64,000 nt of DNA from a virus, in the IMG/VR virus record IMGVR_UViG_3300035438_000194, positions 1-64,000 of that record; one strand, given 5' to 3'. Below are positions 3,346 to 32,877 of the stretch, piece by piece. The notes beneath the pieces were generated by a model. That model did no database searches and was not told where the DNA came from. It saw only the letters and a program-made list of their open reading frames with translations. The stretch's first letter is position 1; every line of letters begins with the position of its first letter. The translations under genes were made by a program, and so were the position numbers.

Positions 3346-4491
3346 TTACATCCAATCAACTTCCACCAGTTGAATAGGATCACCTAAAGAATTAACCTTA
3401 TAGTTATCCTTGAACCACTGCTGTACTTCAGGTTTCTCTAACCATTCTTTCACATAATCGTGATAGCATTGGTCAACAGACTTGTTATTCTTACTATACA
3501 TCTGGTTAATAATGAAGTTATCATCTTCCCAGTTTTTAGTAATACCAACAGTAGCACGTGCATCACGGTCAGCAAACTTCAATACAAAGTAACTCTTGTC
3601 AGTAACCTGTGTATTATAGTTAGTATACACACAGTGAGACATCATTCTGCCTTCTATATATAGGTCCTTACTATTAGTGATTAATTCTAGACAACCGTTA
3701 TGTGGTAAGCTGTTAAGATACTTATAGTCAACAGACTGTACAGAATCTTGCTCAATATCCATTATCTCTTTGGTCCAATCTTGGTGAACTTCTTTGACAC
3801 GGTTATTTGACCACTTAAAGTCTATCTTACGCCCTAACATTTGAGCCTGCTTGATTAAGTCTTGCATTATCCAATCTACAGCACCATTTGAAATTACATA
3901 TTCAATAGCGTGGTTAGGATCCTTGGCAACACTTAATGTATCAGCAAGACCCTGAATTCTAAAGCCTTGATTCTTATTAACATAGTCCCATACTAACTCG
4001 GTAGATATATTCATACCACGCATAGTTGGGTTAGTCTTAATGATAGCCTTGATTAAGTCTCTTGGATTAGTAATCTTACCTAACAATACCTTATTGATAT
4101 TGCTATTGGTAGTACTCATTTGTAATCCCATAGGTGAATTGGTAAACCATTCAGCCTTAAAGTACTTACACATATCACCGAGTAGAAGAGTACCGTTAGT
4201 AGCAGCCTGCTTACCATACCACCACTTAAATTTCTTGGTAGCCTTCTCATATGTACAACCAAAGGTGGAATCTCTTTTAAGATATAACCCTGTTTTGTTA
4301 TTCCATCTAGGGTTGCAGTTATTACTTGCCCAATAGATATGAGTATCAGACTCTGCTCTGGTATCTTCTGTCCAAACATATAAAGAACCCTTAAAGTAGT
4401 GGAACCTTTGCTTATCAATAGGTTGACTCTTAACGTTCAGATATGTAGTTTTTTGAATAGGAGTAAAATCCGTAATATTAGTTACTTGCAT
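3346..4491 (-). CDS. PcfJ-like domain protein
   Basis: 381 aa. The C-terminal third carries the PcfJ-like signature: EGRMMSHCV at 280-288, followed by YFVLKFADRDARATVGI and then IINQMYSKNNKSVD at 327-340. PcfJ-domain proteins occur in conjugative plasmids and many phages; their biochemical role is not established. The N-terminal 250 residues are unassigned, with several Trp and Lys clusters. The gene begins 34 nt downstream of the tRNA-like RNA (4526-4603) on the same strand and could be read from the same transcript. Confidence 0.75.
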   Translation of the reverse strand: MQVTNITDFTPIQKTTYLNVKSQPIDKQRFHYFKGSLYVWTEDTRAESDTHIYWASNNCNPRWNNKTGLYLKRDSTFGCTYEKATKKFKWWYGKQAATNGTLLLGDMCKYFKAEWFTNSPMGLQMSTTNSNINKVLLGKITNPRDLIKAIIKTNPTMRGMNISTELVWDYVNKNQGFRIQGLADTLSVAKDPNHAIEYVISNGAVDWIMQDLIKQAQMLGRKIDFKWSNNRVKEVHQDWTKEIMDIEQDSVQSVDYKYLNSLPHNGCLELITNSKDLYIEGRMMSHCVYTNYNTQVTDKSYFVLKFADRDARATVGITKNWEDDNFIINQMYSKNNKSVDQCYHDYVKEWLEKPEVQQWFKDNYKVNSLGDPIQLVEVDWM

Positions 4492-4525
4492 TTGAGTTGG
4501 TTTTTTAGTTGATATAAATTTTAGA

Positions 4526-4603
4526 AGCCAGGGTGAGACTCGAACTCACAACGCACAACCATAAAGGGTGTGATACCATTTCCACATTACGTGCTACCTG
4601 ACT
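4526..4603 (-). tRNA. tRNA-like element, non-canonical
   Basis: Read on the minus strand, 78 nt begin AGTCAGG and end CCTGGCT, a 7-bp acceptor-type stem with one U-G pair. U8-A9 follow, and the 3' half has a perfect T-arm: GTGAG, loop TTCGAGT, CTCAC. One reading of the anticodon arm (loop CTTTATG) has U33 and anticodon UUA, but its stem has a mismatch, and the D region is about 5-6 nt too long for a canonical fold. An alternative fold pairs GCAC with GTGC and contains a TGTGG/TCACA hairpin. No CCA is encoded. It may be a degenerate tRNA or a tRNA mimic; I favour a mimic. Confidence 0.4.
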
Positions 4604-4691
4604 GGGTTACCCCGCGTCACCGTTGTATTTAACAGTAACTAAACTTAATTTGAGGACCGTTGTCCTTCCCGATGAAAAAAGTTGTGACGCG
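4526..4691 (-). ncRNA. Candidate structured RNA ending in a tRNA-like domain
   Basis: Upstream of the tRNA-like domain, on the same strand, CGCGTCAC/GTGACGCG (4684-4691 with 4613-4620) form an 8-bp helix. It encloses a perfect AGGAC-AACG-GTCCT hairpin (4653-4666). A GGG-GUAA-CCC hairpin with a GNRA loop (4604-4613) links this helix to the tRNA-like domain. The succession of three local helices and a tRNA-like end over 166 nt, with no coding frame, argues for a functional RNA. It lies between the lipoprotein gene (stop at 4704) and the PcfJ-like gene, downstream of the DUF2828 operon. Confidence 0.5.
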
Positions 4692-4703
4692 AGGTAGTAT
4701 TGT

Positions 4704-5104: not shown

Positions 5105-6508
5105 CTAATCCAACTTGATACAACTGTATCTATCAGAGTTAACGGTCTTTAGCATTACTGCTAACGGATTCAAATCATCACCACCTAATACAGACTTGAT
5201 AATGCTCGGACTATATCCGCTCACAAGTGCAGTGTTTGGTGTGTCAACCTTCACAGGTACATTACCCAATCTACCATTCACATTCCAAAAGATTATACCT
5301 GGCATCTGATAGCCTGCAGCAGCATACATACCCTTGATTGCATCAAAGTTAGTACGTCTATCACACGCTTGGTCAAACTCCATATCACTGATAATCAGTA
5401 ACTTGGTTGGCATATCTTCCTGTGATACTTTACCTGCAATTGCACGGTTAAGTAACACATTGAATGTCTTGAATAAGTCAGTGTTCATACCCCAATCTGC
5501 TTGACGTAGGTTAACTACTCTCTCTGCAAGAGTATTACCTTGTATCAGGCGGAACTGTGGACTCTCACTAAACGTCAATACTAAATCCTTGAAAGGACCT
5601 TCATTGCGTTCAGAGATATACAAACCTAACCCGATTGATACGTCCATTGGTGTACCCATCATACTACCTGATACATCACAGATTGGTAAGATACGCTCTG
5701 TACAACCTTCCATATAATTAGGTAAAGACTTCCACATAGCATCATATGCTGCTGCGTTAGACTCTTCACCCCAATTCATATTTGTGATCTTGTTAACAAT
5801 ATCACTTGGAAACAGTACCGAAGCGTTCATCTTCTGTTTACCTTCCATAACATCACTGATATAAGAACTGTATCTTACACCATCGTGCTTGGTAAAAGAG
5901 TTACTATATCTCTTTCCTGCAACAGATGGAACTGTACTATACTGAATAGTTTCCCATTCATTAGCACACATCTTCTGCTCAACAGTATTAGACATAGCAG
6001 TTAGTCTTCTACGGAAGGTACCCGCTGATACATTGAGGTACTTATGCATAGCAACAAACCATTCACCTTTACGGGGAAACCATTTGGCTAACAGATTAGC
6101 ATTCTCATTCTCCTTCAGTTGGTGGTCCAACCAATTAAGAGTATTATCACTCGGTCTTTCAATGATGAAGATGTCTTTCCAATAACCAAACACAGGTATA
6201 TGTATAGCAACTTGCTCATACACATCTGGGAATGATATCAAAAGACTTCTCATTATCACTTGGAAGAAACGCTTCTCACCTGCACCACCGCGTGCATCAC
6301 GTGCCCAAAATACTATCTTAAGAGCAGTAAGTTTATCTTCACGATAAGCCCTGATAAATGCTTTTATGATATCTTCTTCAGGCATAAAACGGCTCGCACC
6401 TGCTATAAAGAACAGGTCAATACAGAAATTACCCGCAGTACTATGTGTAACTGCTCCGTTATTGGTAAGACTGTCATTAGAAAACATTGCGTTGGTAAAA
6501 GTATCCAT
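5105..6508 (-). CDS. DUF2828 protein with von Willebrand A domain (Ro60/TROVE-like plan)
   Basis: 467 aa from the Met complementary to 6506-6508 (MDTFTNAMFSN); an in-frame ATG 23 codons earlier would start inside the leader. The N-terminal part is helical and contains ARDARGGAGEK (residues 69-79), typical of DUF2828. The C-terminal vWA domain has the MIDAS motif DVSGSM at 278-283, the MIDAS Thr in GMNTD near 343 and ISDMEFD at about 374-380. Helical repeats followed by a vWA domain are also the plan of Ro60/Rsr, which bind Y RNA. Kinship with Ro60 is a structural inference. A Y-RNA-like helix lies 30 nt upstream and a tRNA-like RNA follows the operon. Confidence 0.85.
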   Translation of the reverse strand: MDTFTNAMFSNDSLTNNGAVTHSTAGNFCIDLFFIAGASRFMPEEDIIKAFIRAYREDKLTALKIVFWARDARGGAGEKRFFQVIMRSLLISFPDVYEQVAIHIPVFGYWKDIFIIERPSDNTLNWLDHQLKENENANLLAKWFPRKGEWFVAMHKYLNVSAGTFRRRLTAMSNTVEQKMCANEWETIQYSTVPSVAGKRYSNSFTKHDGVRYSSYISDVMEGKQKMNASVLFPSDIVNKITNMNWGEESNAAAYDAMWKSLPNYMEGCTERILPICDVSGSMMGTPMDVSIGLGLYISERNEGPFKDLVLTFSESPQFRLIQGNTLAERVVNLRQADWGMNTDLFKTFNVLLNRAIAGKVSQEDMPTKLLIISDMEFDQACDRRTNFDAIKGMYAAAGYQMPGIIFWNVNGRLGNVPVKVDTPNTALVSGYSPSIIKSVLGGDDLNPLAVMLKTVNSDRYSCIKLD

Positions 6509-6538: not shown

Positions 6539-6629
6539 GAGATTGGTAGGCCACGGTATCACTACTCGGCTTTGCACATACTACAGAATGAAGAGAGCCT
6601 AACAGTTAACTGTTGTGACCTACCATCTC
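6539..6629 (-). ncRNA. Y-RNA-like hairpin upstream of the DUF2828 gene
   Basis: On the minus strand, GAGATGGTAGGTCAC at the 5' end pairs with GTGGCCTACCAATCTC at the 3' end: 15 bp with one U-G pair and a single bulged A. On the plus strand the U-G position is a C-A mismatch, which favours minus-strand transcription, co-directional with the DUF2828 gene that starts 30 nt downstream. The enclosed loop of about 60 nt holds an AACAG-UUAA-CUGUU hairpin and a GGCU/AGCC helix. Y RNAs likewise close on a long terminal helix with a bulge that Ro60 recognises. It could also be a 5'-UTR regulatory element. Confidence 0.55.
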
Positions 6630-6936
6630 GTTTTGCATTGTATTTTTTTTACAGTGCTGATTCATTCTTTAATGTGCGGGGTTATCTTATGCTAAACAGA
6701 ATAGTTGTTTAACCTTATTATAATTGTAGTTTTAATAGTGCTGAACTATACTTCACTAACATAAGACGGGTTGTAAAGATACAGAATGCAGTTTAACTTA
6801 CCATAGTTTTTTATAGTGCGGTTAACATTCTTCACTTTACAATAGGGTACGTGATAATCAGTAAAGGTGCAGGGGGCTACCCATTTTTTGAACCTTGCGG
6901 GTTTTTACCGCTTCTGCATTACCACAATATGAGTAG
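6630..6936 (-). repeat. Non-coding stretch with three imperfect ~80-bp repeats
   Basis: No credible ORF. AGTGCTG/AGTGCGG recurs at 6653-6659, 6737-6743 and 6815-6821, spaced 84 and 78 bp. Each copy is flanked by similar sequence: an A/T run on one side; CATTCTT or CTTCACT, a G-rich patch and ACAGAAT or ATAATCAG on the other. On the minus strand each reads roughly C(A/C)GCACT(A/G)T followed by A-rich sequence. At 6868-6918 TGCAG/CTGCA flank further inverted sequence. Possible roles are tandem promoters, operators or small-RNA copies. Confidence 0.4.
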
Positions 6937-24931: not shown

Positions 24932-27128
24932 TATAGAGATTCCTACATGGGAGAATGGAGAGTGGTCAGTAACTACTTTTCCTACCCGTGATGACTTTAA
25001 GGAGTTTGTAGTTAGCATATTTAAAGAACCAGGTCAGTATCAGTTTGATGAAACTAGCTTAATGTTTAATGAACAGGCTAGACAATTCAATACTCAAGGG
25101 TTCTACTGCAAGTCTCCTCAGGGTACTAAGGACTTTATTGTATACTGGAATGATCAGAAGAACAAGTGTAGAACCGGAGCTATTTATAAAAGCAATGGTA
25201 ACGCTTGGTTTATTCCACGTGACTATTATATGTGGTTAAACTTTCTACCTATTTTTAATAAAGAGATTCAGAAGTTTGGTTTTGCGGATGTGAGAGATGC
25301 TCAGTATCATCTAGCTCTGTATGAATGTTTAGCAGAGTTACACTATAGACATTCTGCTATCTTAAAGAAACGTCAGATTGCATCATCATACTACCATGCT
25401 GGTAAGTTAATTAATCAGATCTGGTTTGAAGAAGGGGTTACTCTCAAGATGGGAGCTAGCCTCAAAGACTATATAAATGAGAAAGGTACATGGAAATTCT
25501 TAAATGAATATGAGGCATTCTTAAATCAACACACCGCTTGGTACCGTCCTATGAACCCTAACAAGGTTATGATGTGGCAACAAAAGATTGAGACTACCAC
25601 AGGTATACAGAAACGTAAATCTGAGATAGGTCTTAAGGGTGTAATGCAAGGGATGTCATTTGAGAAAGATCCTACTAACGGGGTAGGGGGACCATGTAAG
25701 TACTTCTTCCATGAGGAAGCTGGTATTGCTCCTAAGATGGATACAACCTTTGAGTACATCCGCCCTGCTATGAAATCAGGATTTATGACTACCGGGATGT
25801 TTATTGCCGCAGGATCTGTGGGTGACTTGTCTCAGTGTGAGCCACTGAAGAAGATGATAACTAGACCTGATGCTAATGATATCTACGCTATTGAGTCTGA
25901 CTTAATTGATGAGACTGGTGTTACAGGTAGAACAGGATTGTTTATTCCTGAACAATGGTCAATGCCGCCATACATTGACAACTTTGGTAACTCTAAGGTG
26001 GAGGAAGCATTACTAGCATTAGATGAACAGTTTGCTGAGTGGAAGAGAGAGTTAGATCCATCTGAGTATCAGCTCCGTATATCTCAGCACCCTAGAAATA
26101 TTAAAGAAGCATTTGACTTCAGAACTGTATCAGTATTCCCTTCTCACTTAGTGACTGCTCAGATACGCAGGATTGAAGATAAGATGTATCCATATGAGTT
26201 CTTAGATATCTACAGAGATGATCACGGTCTACCTGCTGTAAAGGAAACAAACAAGTTACCTATATCAGAGTTTCCAATTACTAAGAATACAGAAGATAAG
26301 ACCGGCACCCTTGTAGTGTATGAACGCCCTGTAAAGGATCCTGAGTTTGGGATGTACTATGCAAGTATTGACCCCGTGTCAGAAGGTAAGACAACTACGT
26401 CTGAATCCCTATGTTCTATCTATGTGTATAAGACACCTGTAGAGGTAACTAGGAATGATGGTGAAAAGGTTGAGACCTTTATAGAGAATGATAAGATTGT
26501 AGCAGCTTGGTGTGGACGCTTTGATGACATCAATAAAACACACGAGCGCTTAGAGTTAATTATTGAGTGGTATAATGCCTGGACTATTGTGGAGAATAAC
26601 ATTAGCCAGTTCATCAACCACATGATGTACAGAAAGAAACAGAAGTATCTGGTGCCTAGATCACAGATCTTGTTCTTAAAGGACATTGGTGCAAATGCCA
26701 ATGTGTTCCAAGAGTATGGATGGCGCAACACAGGTACCTTATTTAAAAGTCATATGGTAAGTTATGCTATTGAGTTCTTGAAAGAAGAGATTCATCAGCA
26801 AACAACTGATGATGGTAAAGTGGTTAAGACAACCTATGGTATTGAGAGAGTCCCAGATATAATGTTGCTCAAAGAAATGATGGCTTACAGAGATGGAGTC
26901 AACGTGGATAGACTTGTATCCTTTGCAGCCTTAATTGCTTTTGCTAAAGTACAGCAAGCAAATAGGGGTTATAAAAAACGTTATGAGGAAACAGGAGCAG
27001 CAAAAAACTTGGATAACCGCAATAATTTCAGTAAATTAAATATGAGCCCTTTCCGTCACATGGGTGGTGGTGGGCATAAGTTTGATGGTATGAAAATACC
27101 ACGATCACCTTTTAAAAATTTCAGATAG
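24915..27128 (+). CDS. terL: Terminase large subunit
   Basis: 737 aa. The ATPase domain has a basic KKRQIASSYYHAGK segment (151-164) where Walker A is expected, and KYFFHEEAG (262-270) as Walker B with the catalytic Glu. The C-terminal RNase H-like nuclease begins with YYASIDPVSEG (481-491), Asp486 being the first metal ligand, and continues through a Glu near 560 (TIVENN). It translocates DNA into the prohead and cuts it. Walker A lacks the canonical GK(S/T). It overlaps the upstream small gene by 17 nt and is followed 1 nt later by the portal gene. Confidence 0.85.
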   Translation: MLKQFDIEIPTWENGEWSVTTFPTRDDFKEFVVSIFKEPGQYQFDETSLMFNEQARQFNTQGFYCKSPQGTKDFIVYWNDQKNKCRTGAIYKSNGNAWFIPRDYYMWLNFLPIFNKEIQKFGFADVRDAQYHLALYECLAELHYRHSAILKKRQIASSYYHAGKLINQIWFEEGVTLKMGASLKDYINEKGTWKFLNEYEAFLNQHTAWYRPMNPNKVMMWQQKIETTTGIQKRKSEIGLKGVMQGMSFEKDPTNGVGGPCKYFFHEEAGIAPKMDTTFEYIRPAMKSGFMTTGMFIAAGSVGDLSQCEPLKKMITRPDANDIYAIESDLIDETGVTGRTGLFIPEQWSMPPYIDNFGNSKVEEALLALDEQFAEWKRELDPSEYQLRISQHPRNIKEAFDFRTVSVFPSHLVTAQIRRIEDKMYPYEFLDIYRDDHGLPAVKETNKLPISEFPITKNTEDKTGTLVVYERPVKDPEFGMYYASIDPVSEGKTTTSESLCSIYVYKTPVEVTRNDGEKVETFIENDKIVAAWCGRFDDINKTHERLELIIEWYNAWTIVENNISQFINHMMYRKKQKYLVPRSQILFLKDIGANANVFQEYGWRNTGTLFKSHMVSYAIEFLKEEIHQQTTDDGKVVKTTYGIERVPDIMLLKEMMAYRDGVNVDRLVSFAALIAFAKVQQANRGYKKRYEETGAAKNLDNRNNFSKLNMSPFRHMGGGGHKFDGMKIPRSPFKNFR

Positions 27129-31257: not shown

Positions 31258-32877
31258 ATGGCAACTCCAGTTTTAAACAATGGTATATTTCTACGAGATA
31301 CCAACTACGCAGCTAGTTCACACGTAGATTCTTACCACTTGGTTAACATGCTCAAGAATGCTGAACCTATGGATTTAGGACCAGTAGATCTTTGGGCAAT
31401 GGCGCAAAAGGTAGAAATGCCTTTGTACCAAATGTCTAGCTTTGGTGGAAAGAACGTTATCAATGTTGACAATGCAAGAGGTGAGTACAAATGGCAAACG
31501 CCAATTGTAATGGATCTTCCTTACATTGTTGATGATATCTTGACCGATGGTGATACCTTAGGAAGAGATGGTCAAACTTTCCAAATCAAAATGTCTCGTA
31601 GAGAATTTGGACATGGTGATATCATCACTTATGACAAATACAACGGGGCTGAGATGTACATCGTTCCTACTGAGGATATCATTCCATTAGGTGACGGTTT
31701 CTTGTACACTGTTCAATTGGTGAACAACGACAGTACTTATGGATTGGATACTTCTATCCTTGCTCCAGGTACTAAGATCTTCCGTAAAGGTTCTGCTCGT
31801 GGTGAGTACGGAGAGCGTTTCTCTGACATCGTGACTGCAACTGGTTTCCGTGAATTCTACAACTTTGTAGGAGGAGCTGAAGCACACGTACACTATTCTG
31901 TATCTTCACGTGCTGATCTTATGATCAAAGGTGGAATGAACGCAGATGGTACTGTACCAGTAGTAGAGATCTGGCGCAACTTTGACAAAACTTCTGATCC
32001 ATCTGTAACTAGTCTTGAGACTATGGTTTCACGCATGGGTAAGGACTATGTTAAGCGTGCTGTAAACAACGGTTCATTATCTCGTACTTTCTTAACTGCA
32101 ATGGAAGCAGCTCACTTGACTAAAGTAGCTACTGACATCGAGACCTACTTAATGTGGGGACAAGGTGGACGTGTACGTCAAGACGGTCCGGATGACTTGC
32201 GTTTATCTGTGGGTCTTTGGAAGCAATTGGATAACTCATTCAAGCGCATCTATAACAAGTCTAACTTCAACTTGGATTTGTTCCGTTCAGAGATTTATAA
32301 CTTCTACGCTGGTAAGGTTGACTTCCAAGGACCAGATCCTAAGCGTCAGTTGATTGTACAAACTGGAATGGGTGGTATGCGTATGGTTAACGAAGCAATC
32401 AAGCGTGAAGCAATGTCTTCTGGATTGTTGATCCAAGCTGCTGACATCGGAGCAATCACTGGTAAAGGTATGGACTTGAACTTTGGATTTGCTTACACTT
32501 CTTATGTTATCCCATTCTTGGCTAACGTTAAGTTTGTGTTGAACCCAGCGTTTGATAACTTACATACTAACGACATTGAAAACCCAATCATTGATGGTTT
32601 CCCATTGTCTTCTTACTCATTCATTATCTTTGATATCACAGATAACACTAATGACAACATCTTCTTGTTGAAGTTATCTTGGGATAATCAATTGAAGTGG
32701 TGGTACCAAAACGGAACTATGGATTACATGGGACGTACCCAAGGTTTCCAAAGCTCTGGTCAATTCAACGGATACCGTGTATTCATGACACAAACAATGC
32801 CTGCGATCTGGGTTAAAGACCCAACCAAAGTATTGAAGATTGTTATGCGTAACCCGGTTACTGGCGGATCATTCTAA
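31258..32877 (+). CDS. Major capsid protein
   Basis: 539 aa, following portal and scaffold genes and ending in a strong terminator, as expected for the most abundant virion protein. Sequence features fit an HK97-type capsid protein: an N-terminal arm, a mixed alpha/beta core with conserved VFR- and GEYGERF-type loops, and a C-terminal strand-rich part (WVKDPTKVLKIVMRNPVTG). Codon choice is cleaner than in neighbours, consistent with high expression. Fold assignment is inferred from position and composition. Confidence 0.8.
   Translation: MATPVLNNGIFLRDTNYAASSHVDSYHLVNMLKNAEPMDLGPVDLWAMAQKVEMPLYQMSSFGGKNVINVDNARGEYKWQTPIVMDLPYIVDDILTDGDTLGRDGQTFQIKMSRREFGHGDIITYDKYNGAEMYIVPTEDIIPLGDGFLYTVQLVNNDSTYGLDTSILAPGTKIFRKGSARGEYGERFSDIVTATGFREFYNFVGGAEAHVHYSVSSRADLMIKGGMNADGTVPVVEIWRNFDKTSDPSVTSLETMVSRMGKDYVKRAVNNGSLSRTFLTAMEAAHLTKVATDIETYLMWGQGGRVRQDGPDDLRLSVGLWKQLDNSFKRIYNKSNFNLDLFRSEIYNFYAGKVDFQGPDPKRQLIVQTGMGGMRMVNEAIKREAMSSGLLIQAADIGAITGKGMDLNFGFAYTSYVIPFLANVKFVLNPAFDNLHTNDIENPIIDGFPLSSYSFIIFDITDNTNDNIFLLKLSWDNQLKWWYQNGTMDYMGRTQGFQSSGQFNGYRVFMTQTMPAIWVKDPTKVLKIVMRNPVTGGSF

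What the first reader, a model, noticed from the sequence alone, without database searches (positions are those of the whole stretch)
6539..6629. Y-RNA-like bulged helix directly upstream of a Ro60-like (DUF2828) gene
A 15-bp terminal helix with one bulged base encloses about 60 nt of internal hairpins. It works only on the minus strand, where a plus-strand C-A mismatch becomes U-G, the same strand as the DUF2828 gene 30 nt downstream. Y RNAs have the same plan and Ro60 contacts the bulged terminal helix. DUF2828 has helical repeats plus a MIDAS vWA domain, as Ro60 does. A phage Ro/Y-type particle would be new for this protein family.
Basis: partly seen in the sequence, partly recalled or inferred. 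Interest (0 to 1): 0.85.

Follow-up and report, generated by a model that had tools for sequence, protein, structure and literature searches.

The report
Y-RNA-like array beside phage Ro gene

Summary
The helix is real: minus strand 6629-6539, z -3.5. It is not the Ro-binding helix. The 730-nt leader of the DUF2828 gene holds three units of an RNA element, at 6842-6771, 6765-6686 and 6677-6574. S2 recurs with unrelated sequences in four further lineages. The element follows DUF2828 almost everywhere. A motif-only search of IMG/VR gave 68 records, 59 with DUF2828, and a scrambled core gave none. In bacterial genomes 48 of 61 stretches had DUF2828, all on the same strand and 46 upstream. Some units elsewhere enclose a tRNA-like module matching Rfam YrlA, the bacterial Y RNA (E down to 6e-7). 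The window protein's model matches Ro60/TROVE structures. So a phage Ro/Y-type particle is the best reading. Y RNAs in mycobacteriophages have been reported and Y RNAs were suggested for a Listeria phage, so the idea is not new. The CAGCA-stem family is not in Rfam 15. Its presence in a crAss-like phage and the pseudoknotted leader appear new. Expression and binding are untested.

The parts
5105..6508 (-). DUF2828 + DUF7788 (vWA) Ro60-like protein gene, 467 aa
   Evidence: Pfam PF25043 2e-53 and PF11443 1.5e-31; PHROG 850 'RNA-binding protein' 2e-133; AlphaFold pLDDT 88, Foldseek best matches TROVE/Ro60
6771..6842 (-). Unit U1: outer helix TTGTAAAG/CTTTACAA, S1 AGAATG/CATTCT, core CCGCAC
   Evidence: sequence; model R1, built without the window's close relatives, hits 6835-6777 at 21.6 bits, E 0.07; same unit in L008 44.1, L005 36.6, L010 32.2 bits
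6686..6765 (-). Unit U2: outer helix CTTATG/CATAAG, S1 AGTATAGT/ACTATTCT (one mismatch), core CAGCAC
   Evidence: sequence; R1 16.9 bits in the window (weak), 28.3 bits in L004; outer helix replaced by ATTCTTACTCT/AGAGTAAGAAT in L007 with pairing kept
6574..6677 (-). Unit U3: outer helix GCACAT/ATGTGC, S1 AGAATGA/TCATTCT, core CAGCAC; its insert holds the 5' strand of S2
   Evidence: exact descriptor hit; S1 and outer helix paired in 100% of cells in 11 close relatives; different sequences with the same plan in L011-L014, L034, L044
6539..6629 (-).
   Evidence: (0-4 of 200 shuffles as good in every relative where the right unit was picked)
6655..6659 (-). CAGCA core of U3, the sequence signature of the element
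   Evidence: scrambling the core removes all hits in IMG/VR

Best explanation
The leader of the phage DUF2828 gene encodes a tandem array of Y-like small RNAs. Their stem, with the CAGCA core and a trailing G, is the docking site for the DUF2828 Ro-like ring protein, and the variable insert is the effector module. SHOWN by computation: the helices, their conservation, the Ro60-like fold, the co-directional linkage, and YrlA-like modules in sister units. INFERRED: that the RNAs are separate transcripts, that the protein binds them through the CAGCA stem, and that the particle works like bacterial Ro60-Y RNPs (gating the ring and tethering it to a nuclease or to tRNA/RNA-repair enzymes). The step from the last unit to feedback control of its own mRNA is speculative.
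For: Descriptor hits cluster at DUF2828, 60 against 3 in shuffled loci. Motif-first searches with no protein input: 13 of 15 records and 59 of 68 records carry DUF2828, scrambled core 0 hits; bacterial genomes 48 of 61 stretches, 48/48 same strand, 46 upstream, mostly 10-520 nt from the gene. Rfam YrlA falls on CAGCA units next to DUF2828: L056 E 6.4e-7 and 9e-4, L051 2.3e-5, L031 1.1e-3. Model R1 finds units in 11 of 12 whole DUF2828 phage genomes, four of them (nt-1, phiWae14, Ci1, avDM12) not used in training, and none in T4, SPO1, phiKZ, crAss001, lambda. Protein fold: Foldseek 9kop 2e-7, 1yvr, 2i91 TM 0.63, phage phiLo Ro60 9l5y. In Listeria phage CKA15 three units (25553-25289) lie directly upstream of CKA15_055; PMC12282133 reports three highly transcribed non-coding regions within 2 kb upstream of that gene and itself suggests Y RNAs.
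Against: No expression or binding data for this phage. The window's own units score low with R1 (E 0.07-0.7) and show no tRNA-like module; Rfam finds nothing in the window at gathering threshold. S1 is invariant among the close relatives, so covariation in the window's clade alone is weak; the large S1 covariation count comes from units chosen for a perfect S1. Of the CKA15 transcribed regions, the one located in the text (26,236-26,727) is not the CAGCA array. Location directly in the mRNA leader also fits a cis-regulatory element.
Confidence: 0.74

Rival explanations
1. Cis-regulatory leader: the CAGCA stems and S2 pseudoknot act in the DUF2828 mRNA itself, as protein-bound autoregulatory operators or as stability elements, and are not released as separate RNAs.
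For: Units are usually 10-520 nt upstream of the gene on the same strand; U3 and S2 end 30 nt before the start codon; S2 position is nearly constant, 33-46 nt before ATG for its core, in all S2-bearing relatives.
Against: Units also lie downstream of the gene (LeBron, S-CoN_Ph7, wV8), among tRNA genes, or about 10 kb away (nt-1, phiWae14, Ci1, avDM12), where they cannot act on that mRNA in cis. Arrays of 3 or more units and tRNA-like modules do not suit a simple operator.
Confidence: 0.18
2. The element is an unrelated structured RNA (riboswitch, ribozyme or sRNA) that sits by DUF2828 because both belong to an accessory-gene and tRNA cluster.
For: Units are often in or near tRNA clusters; nine of 68 motif records have no DUF2828 in the held sequence.
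Against: Linkage is far tighter than cluster sharing: same strand 96 of 96, mostly adjacent, in phages and Firmicutes genomes. Most of the nine negatives are short fragments. YrlA modules lie inside several units.
Confidence: 0.06
3. One reading: the 15-bp S2 helix with its bulged base is itself the Y RNA and the Ro60 contact.
For: Stable helix, conserved as a helix with replaced sequence in L011-L014, L034, L044.
Against: S2 is missing in L022, L031, L032, L033, L037, L050, L052, L054 and L056, all of which have DUF2828 and CAGCA units. The lower five pairs below the bulge are poorly conserved even among close relatives: the pairs at columns 87, 89 and 91 fail in 5-9 of 11.
Confidence: 0.04

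Closest known systems
Bacterial Y RNA YrlA (Rfam RF02553) with Ro60/Rsr
   Same: Encoded beside a Ro60-fold gene; terminal stem plus variable effector module; several DUF2828-linked units contain the YrlA tRNA-like module.
   Different: Conserved stem signature here is AGNNNN-NNN-CAGCA...NNNNCU-G, not visible in the YrlA consensus printed by cmscan; most units are short and lack the tRNA-like module; window units do not match YrlA.
Y RNAs of mycobacteriophages (Chen et al. 2014, RNA 20:1715; not held, known through PMC12282133 and from memory)
   Same: Phage Ro-like gene of the same protein family with units nearby; LeBron units carry the CAGCA core and one matches YrlA.
   Different: Whether that paper described the CAGCA stem, the short units or crAss-like phages could not be checked.
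Putative Y RNAs of Listeria phage CKA15 (PMC12282133)
   Same: Authors propose Y RNAs upstream of the DUF2828 gene CKA15_055; three CAGCA units lie just upstream of it.
   Different: Proposed from transcription level and an HHpred match to Rsr; no RNA element described in the text read; their most abundant RNA (26,236-26,727) is not this element.
Vertebrate Y RNA-Ro60 particle
   Same: Ro60-like fold with vWA domain; in the window units a terminal helix interrupted by a small internal loop.
   Different: No sequence similarity seen; arrays in the leader of the protein's own gene; pseudoknotted last unit.
Ro60 of Thermus phage phiLo (PDB 9l5y)
   Same: Phage-encoded Ro60 fold; Foldseek match E 6e-5.
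   Different: Not found by a sequence-profile search with the DUF2828 alignment.

Membership tests
Ro60 / TROVE protein family | Ro60 fold: helical-repeat ring plus vWA domain | tested here: met
   AlphaFold model pLDDT 88.1; Foldseek probability 1.00 to 9kop, 1yvr, 2i91, 9nfa, 9l5y, TM 0.5-0.63
Ro60 / TROVE protein family | Sequence match to the TROVE profile or to solved Ro60 sequences | tested here: not met
   Pfam gives DUF2828 and DUF7788, not TROVE; no PDB Ro60 sequence match even with the profile
Ro60 / TROVE protein family | MIDAS residues (DxSxS) of the vWA domain | tested here: met
   D278, S280, S282 invariant in 31 DUF2828 proteins
Y RNA | Encoded beside a Ro60-type gene | tested here: met
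Y RNA | Terminal helix formed by the two ends of the RNA, interrupted by a small loop or bulge | tested here: met
   outer helix, internal loop and S1 in U1-U3 of the window clade; outside that clade an outer helix is only modestly above chance. The true RNA ends are unknown.
Y RNA (YrlA type) | tRNA-like module in at least one Y RNA | tested here: not met
   no YrlA match in the window or its surroundings; met in L031, L051, L056
Y RNA | Discrete stable small RNA | not testable with these tools
   no RNA data for this phage
Y RNA | Bound by Ro60 | not testable with these tools
   needs co-purification or binding assay

The most novel reading that the evidence does not exclude
DUF2828 proteins of phages and Firmicutes genomes form a separate Ro/Y ribonucleoprotein class with its own RNA family (CAGCA stem), found mainly as arrays of short, non-tRNA-like RNAs. 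In crAss-like phages the last RNA of the array is a pseudoknot embedded in the Ro mRNA leader, so that free Ro protein reads out Y RNA supply and controls its own synthesis.
Probability: 0.25. Interest if true: 0.78.

Novelty: new variant of a known kind. Interest (0 to 1): 0.63.

Why it matters
Ro-like proteins are carried by at least 677 of 50,697 catalogued phage records, and what they do is unknown. A sequence-level signature of their probable RNA partner, absent from Rfam, can be searched for in any genome. It turns 'does phage Ro have Y RNAs, and where do they bind?' into a direct pull-down and mutation test in laboratory phages such as Felix O1 relatives or mycobacteriophages. The crAss-like case extends the system to a very abundant phage group with its own pseudoknotted form.

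Tried and rejected
tRNA reading of the element: ARAGORN finds no tRNA in the window. Cloverleaf reading of the S2 domain: three hairpins are not the optimum in most relatives and no T-loop or D-loop signature is present. Chance: shuffles, scrambled-core control, control phages. RtcB link for the window phage: no RtcB in the record. A general outer helix in all lineages: only modestly above shuffled flanks. The CKA15 abundant RNA at 26,236-26,727 as direct proof of expression: it does not contain the units. A first pattern search of the own genome was set with too tight a gap and found nothing.

Full report
CHECK OF THE OBSERVATION. The helix described is present at the stated coordinates. The minus-strand RNA 6629-6539 folds at -32.0 kcal/mol against a shuffled mean of -20.5 (z -3.5). 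The plus strand folds nearly as well, so 'works only on the minus strand' is overstated. The gene downstream runs 6508-5105 on the minus strand, 30 nt after the helix. It is DUF2828 plus DUF7788 by Pfam and PHROG 850 'RNA-binding protein'. The window is part of a 113,846-bp virus record with a Crassvirus-type major capsid protein at 31258-32877, so the phage is crAss-like.

WHAT ELSE IS THERE. Forty-six relatives of the gene were fetched with their flanks, and their leaders were read side by side. A recurring motif appears: AGNNNN(N), 2-3 nt, C[AC]GCA, a variable insert, the reverse complement of the half-stem, then G. An exact-stem descriptor found 60 hits in the loci, nearly all near the DUF2828 gene and on its strand, against 3 in shuffled sequence. 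Later, 283 units gave a G directly after the stem in 264 cases, a core of mostly CAGCAA, and a median insert of 41 nt, range 9-117. The window has three units in its leader: U1 6842-6771, U2 6765-6686, U3 6677-6574. In these an outer helix and a small internal loop (5' TGA/TAA, 3' GUNNN) precede the S1 stem.

In the window clade S1 never varies, and S2 has one double change, which alone proves little. The stronger evidence is that the same crossing pair of helices recurs with unrelated S2 sequences: GGTAGGCCAC in the clade, GGGAAGG in L011-L013, CCTAGCC in L014, GGGGAAACC in L034, TAAGGGGAGAA in L044. At most 4 of 200 shuffles were as good in each locus where the right unit was picked; L006 and L009 were mis-assigned by the script in that test, but S2 is visible in their alignment. 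S2 is not a crossing partner in L022, L031, L032, L033, L037, L050, L052, L054 or L056. The three inner hairpins are not generally conserved.

IS THE UNIT TIED TO THE RO-LIKE PROTEIN? This was tested from the RNA side, without the protein. AAGATGC-NNA-CAGCAA-...-GCATCTTG in IMG/VR gave 15 loci, 13 of whose records encode DUF2828. AAGACAC-NNA-CAGCAA-...-GTGTCTTG gave 69 stretches in 68 records; the same stem with a scrambled core gave none. DUF2828 is in 43 of those records within the fetched stretch and in 16 more in the rest of the record, 59 of 68 in all; 48 of 48 matches with the gene in the stretch are on its strand, 37 upstream and 11 downstream. Most of the nine without it are short fragments. 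In one-per-species bacterial genomes the same motif gave 61 stretches; 48 have DUF2828 within the stretch, 48 of 48 on the same strand, 46 with the unit upstream, mostly 10-520 nt away. A covariance model (R1) was built from 40 short units of other phages, with no sequence of the window or its close relatives L001-L010 (it does include units of the more distant L011-L014). It found units in 11 of 12 whole DUF2828 phage genomes, four of them new to the model with units about 10 kb from the gene. It found none in five control phages, of which only crAss001 has a weak vWA-like match to DUF2828. R1 recognises U1 in relatives of the window (44, 37, 32 bits) and, weakly, U1 and U2 in the window (21.6 and 16.9 bits).

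LINK TO Y RNAs. In L031, L056 (Enterococcus phage EfV12-phi1) and L051 (Mycobacterium phage LeBron) the insert of some CAGCA units matches Rfam YrlA, the bacterial Y RNA with a tRNA-like module: E 1e-3 in L031, 6e-7 and 9e-4 in L056, 2e-5 in L051. In L031, L056 and Bacillus phage FADO (L054) the insert reads as a permuted tRNA: T-arm, closed acceptor stem, D-arm. These scores are below the Rfam gathering score of 69 bits, but they fall inside units defined independently by the CAGCA stem. The protein model (pLDDT 88) has its best solved-structure matches in TROVE and Ro60 entries, including a phage Ro60, although no sequence search reaches them. The MIDAS residues are invariant.

EXPRESSION EVIDENCE FROM A RELATIVE. 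PMC12282133 reports for Listeria phage CKA15 three highly transcribed non-coding regions within 2 kb upstream of CKA15_055, which is its DUF2828 gene, detects that protein in virions, and suggests Y RNAs. Three CAGCA units lie at 25,553-25,289, directly upstream of that gene, behind a promoter-like sequence (TTGACA ... TATCAT). The one region whose coordinates are given in the text (26,236-26,727) is something else, so this is suggestive only.

MECHANISM. Most likely the CAGCA stem is where the DUF2828 ring binds, and the insert is the effector part, as in bacterial Ro60-Y particles where a Y RNA tethers the ring to an RNA-processing enzyme (the Deinococcus Rsr-PNPase case cited in PMC12282133). 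Frequent placement of units in or near phage tRNA clusters would fit a role in RNA quality control or repair during infection; this is inference, and no RtcB is found in the window's record. For the last unit of the window, the pseudoknot may stabilise the RNA end or couple Y RNA supply to DUF2828 expression; this is speculative.

KNOWN OR NEW. Phage Y RNAs as such are not new: PMC12282133 cites Chen et al. 2014 for mycobacteriophages, and Ro60-related proteins are noted in jumbo phages in PMC7824862 and PMC7765460. From memory, the 2014 abstract speaks of more than 250 bacterial and phage species. Not found in Rfam 15 or in the papers searched: a defined RNA family with the CAGCA stem, its near-universal link to DUF2828, its presence in crAss-like phages, and the pseudoknotted leader form. 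Chen et al. 2014 and the later reviews are not in the library, so the motif itself may have been described there.

Noticed in passing
window 4490-4700, minus strand: Sequence with a perfect tRNA T-arm (GTGAGTTCGAGTCTCAC) and a possible acceptor 3' strand, next to an inverted repeat CGCGTCAC/GTGACGCG, between the DUF2828 and PcfJ-like genes. ARAGORN and Rfam call no tRNA; perhaps a broken, split or intron-bearing tRNA, or another tRNA-like RNA.
   Followed up: partly
window 3346-4491, minus strand: PcfJ-like protein gene (Pfam PF14284, 1e-9) downstream of the DUF2828 gene; function in phages unclear.
   Followed up: no
L060 (Listeria phage CKA15) 6489-6980: About 490-nt highly abundant non-coding RNA upstream of the DUF2828 gene; about two thirds of phage transcripts at 40 min map to two of its spurious ORFs (PMC12282133). 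Does not contain CAGCA units; identity unknown.
   Followed up: partly
L034, about 300-450 nt upstream of DUF2828: Sequence CTGATGAGTCC...GGACGAAAC typical of a hammerhead ribozyme, close to the Y-like units.
   Followed up: no
L011, L012, L013, L034 upstream regions: Repeated pair AGTTGTAATGC ... ATTACAACTGAGTGCAGAGGGG around variable inserts near the units; looks like another structured RNA or mobile element.
   Followed up: no
L056 (Enterococcus phage EfV12-phi1) 5200-5780: Each Y-like unit is preceded by a similar leader (GGTTTTGGC...CATAGTTCC...GCCGGAACATAAAG) with a small hairpin, perhaps a repeated promoter or processing signal.
   Followed up: no
L032 2689-3084: tmRNA gene (Rfam RF00023, 2.6e-21) about 1 kb upstream of DUF2828 in a phage contig; L056 also carries a tmRNA at 845-1195.
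   Followed up: no
Listeria phage CKA15, gene CKA15_055: The DUF2828 Ro-like protein was detected in purified virions by mass spectrometry (57% coverage), as reported in PMC12282133, which raises the possibility that it is injected.
   Followed up: no
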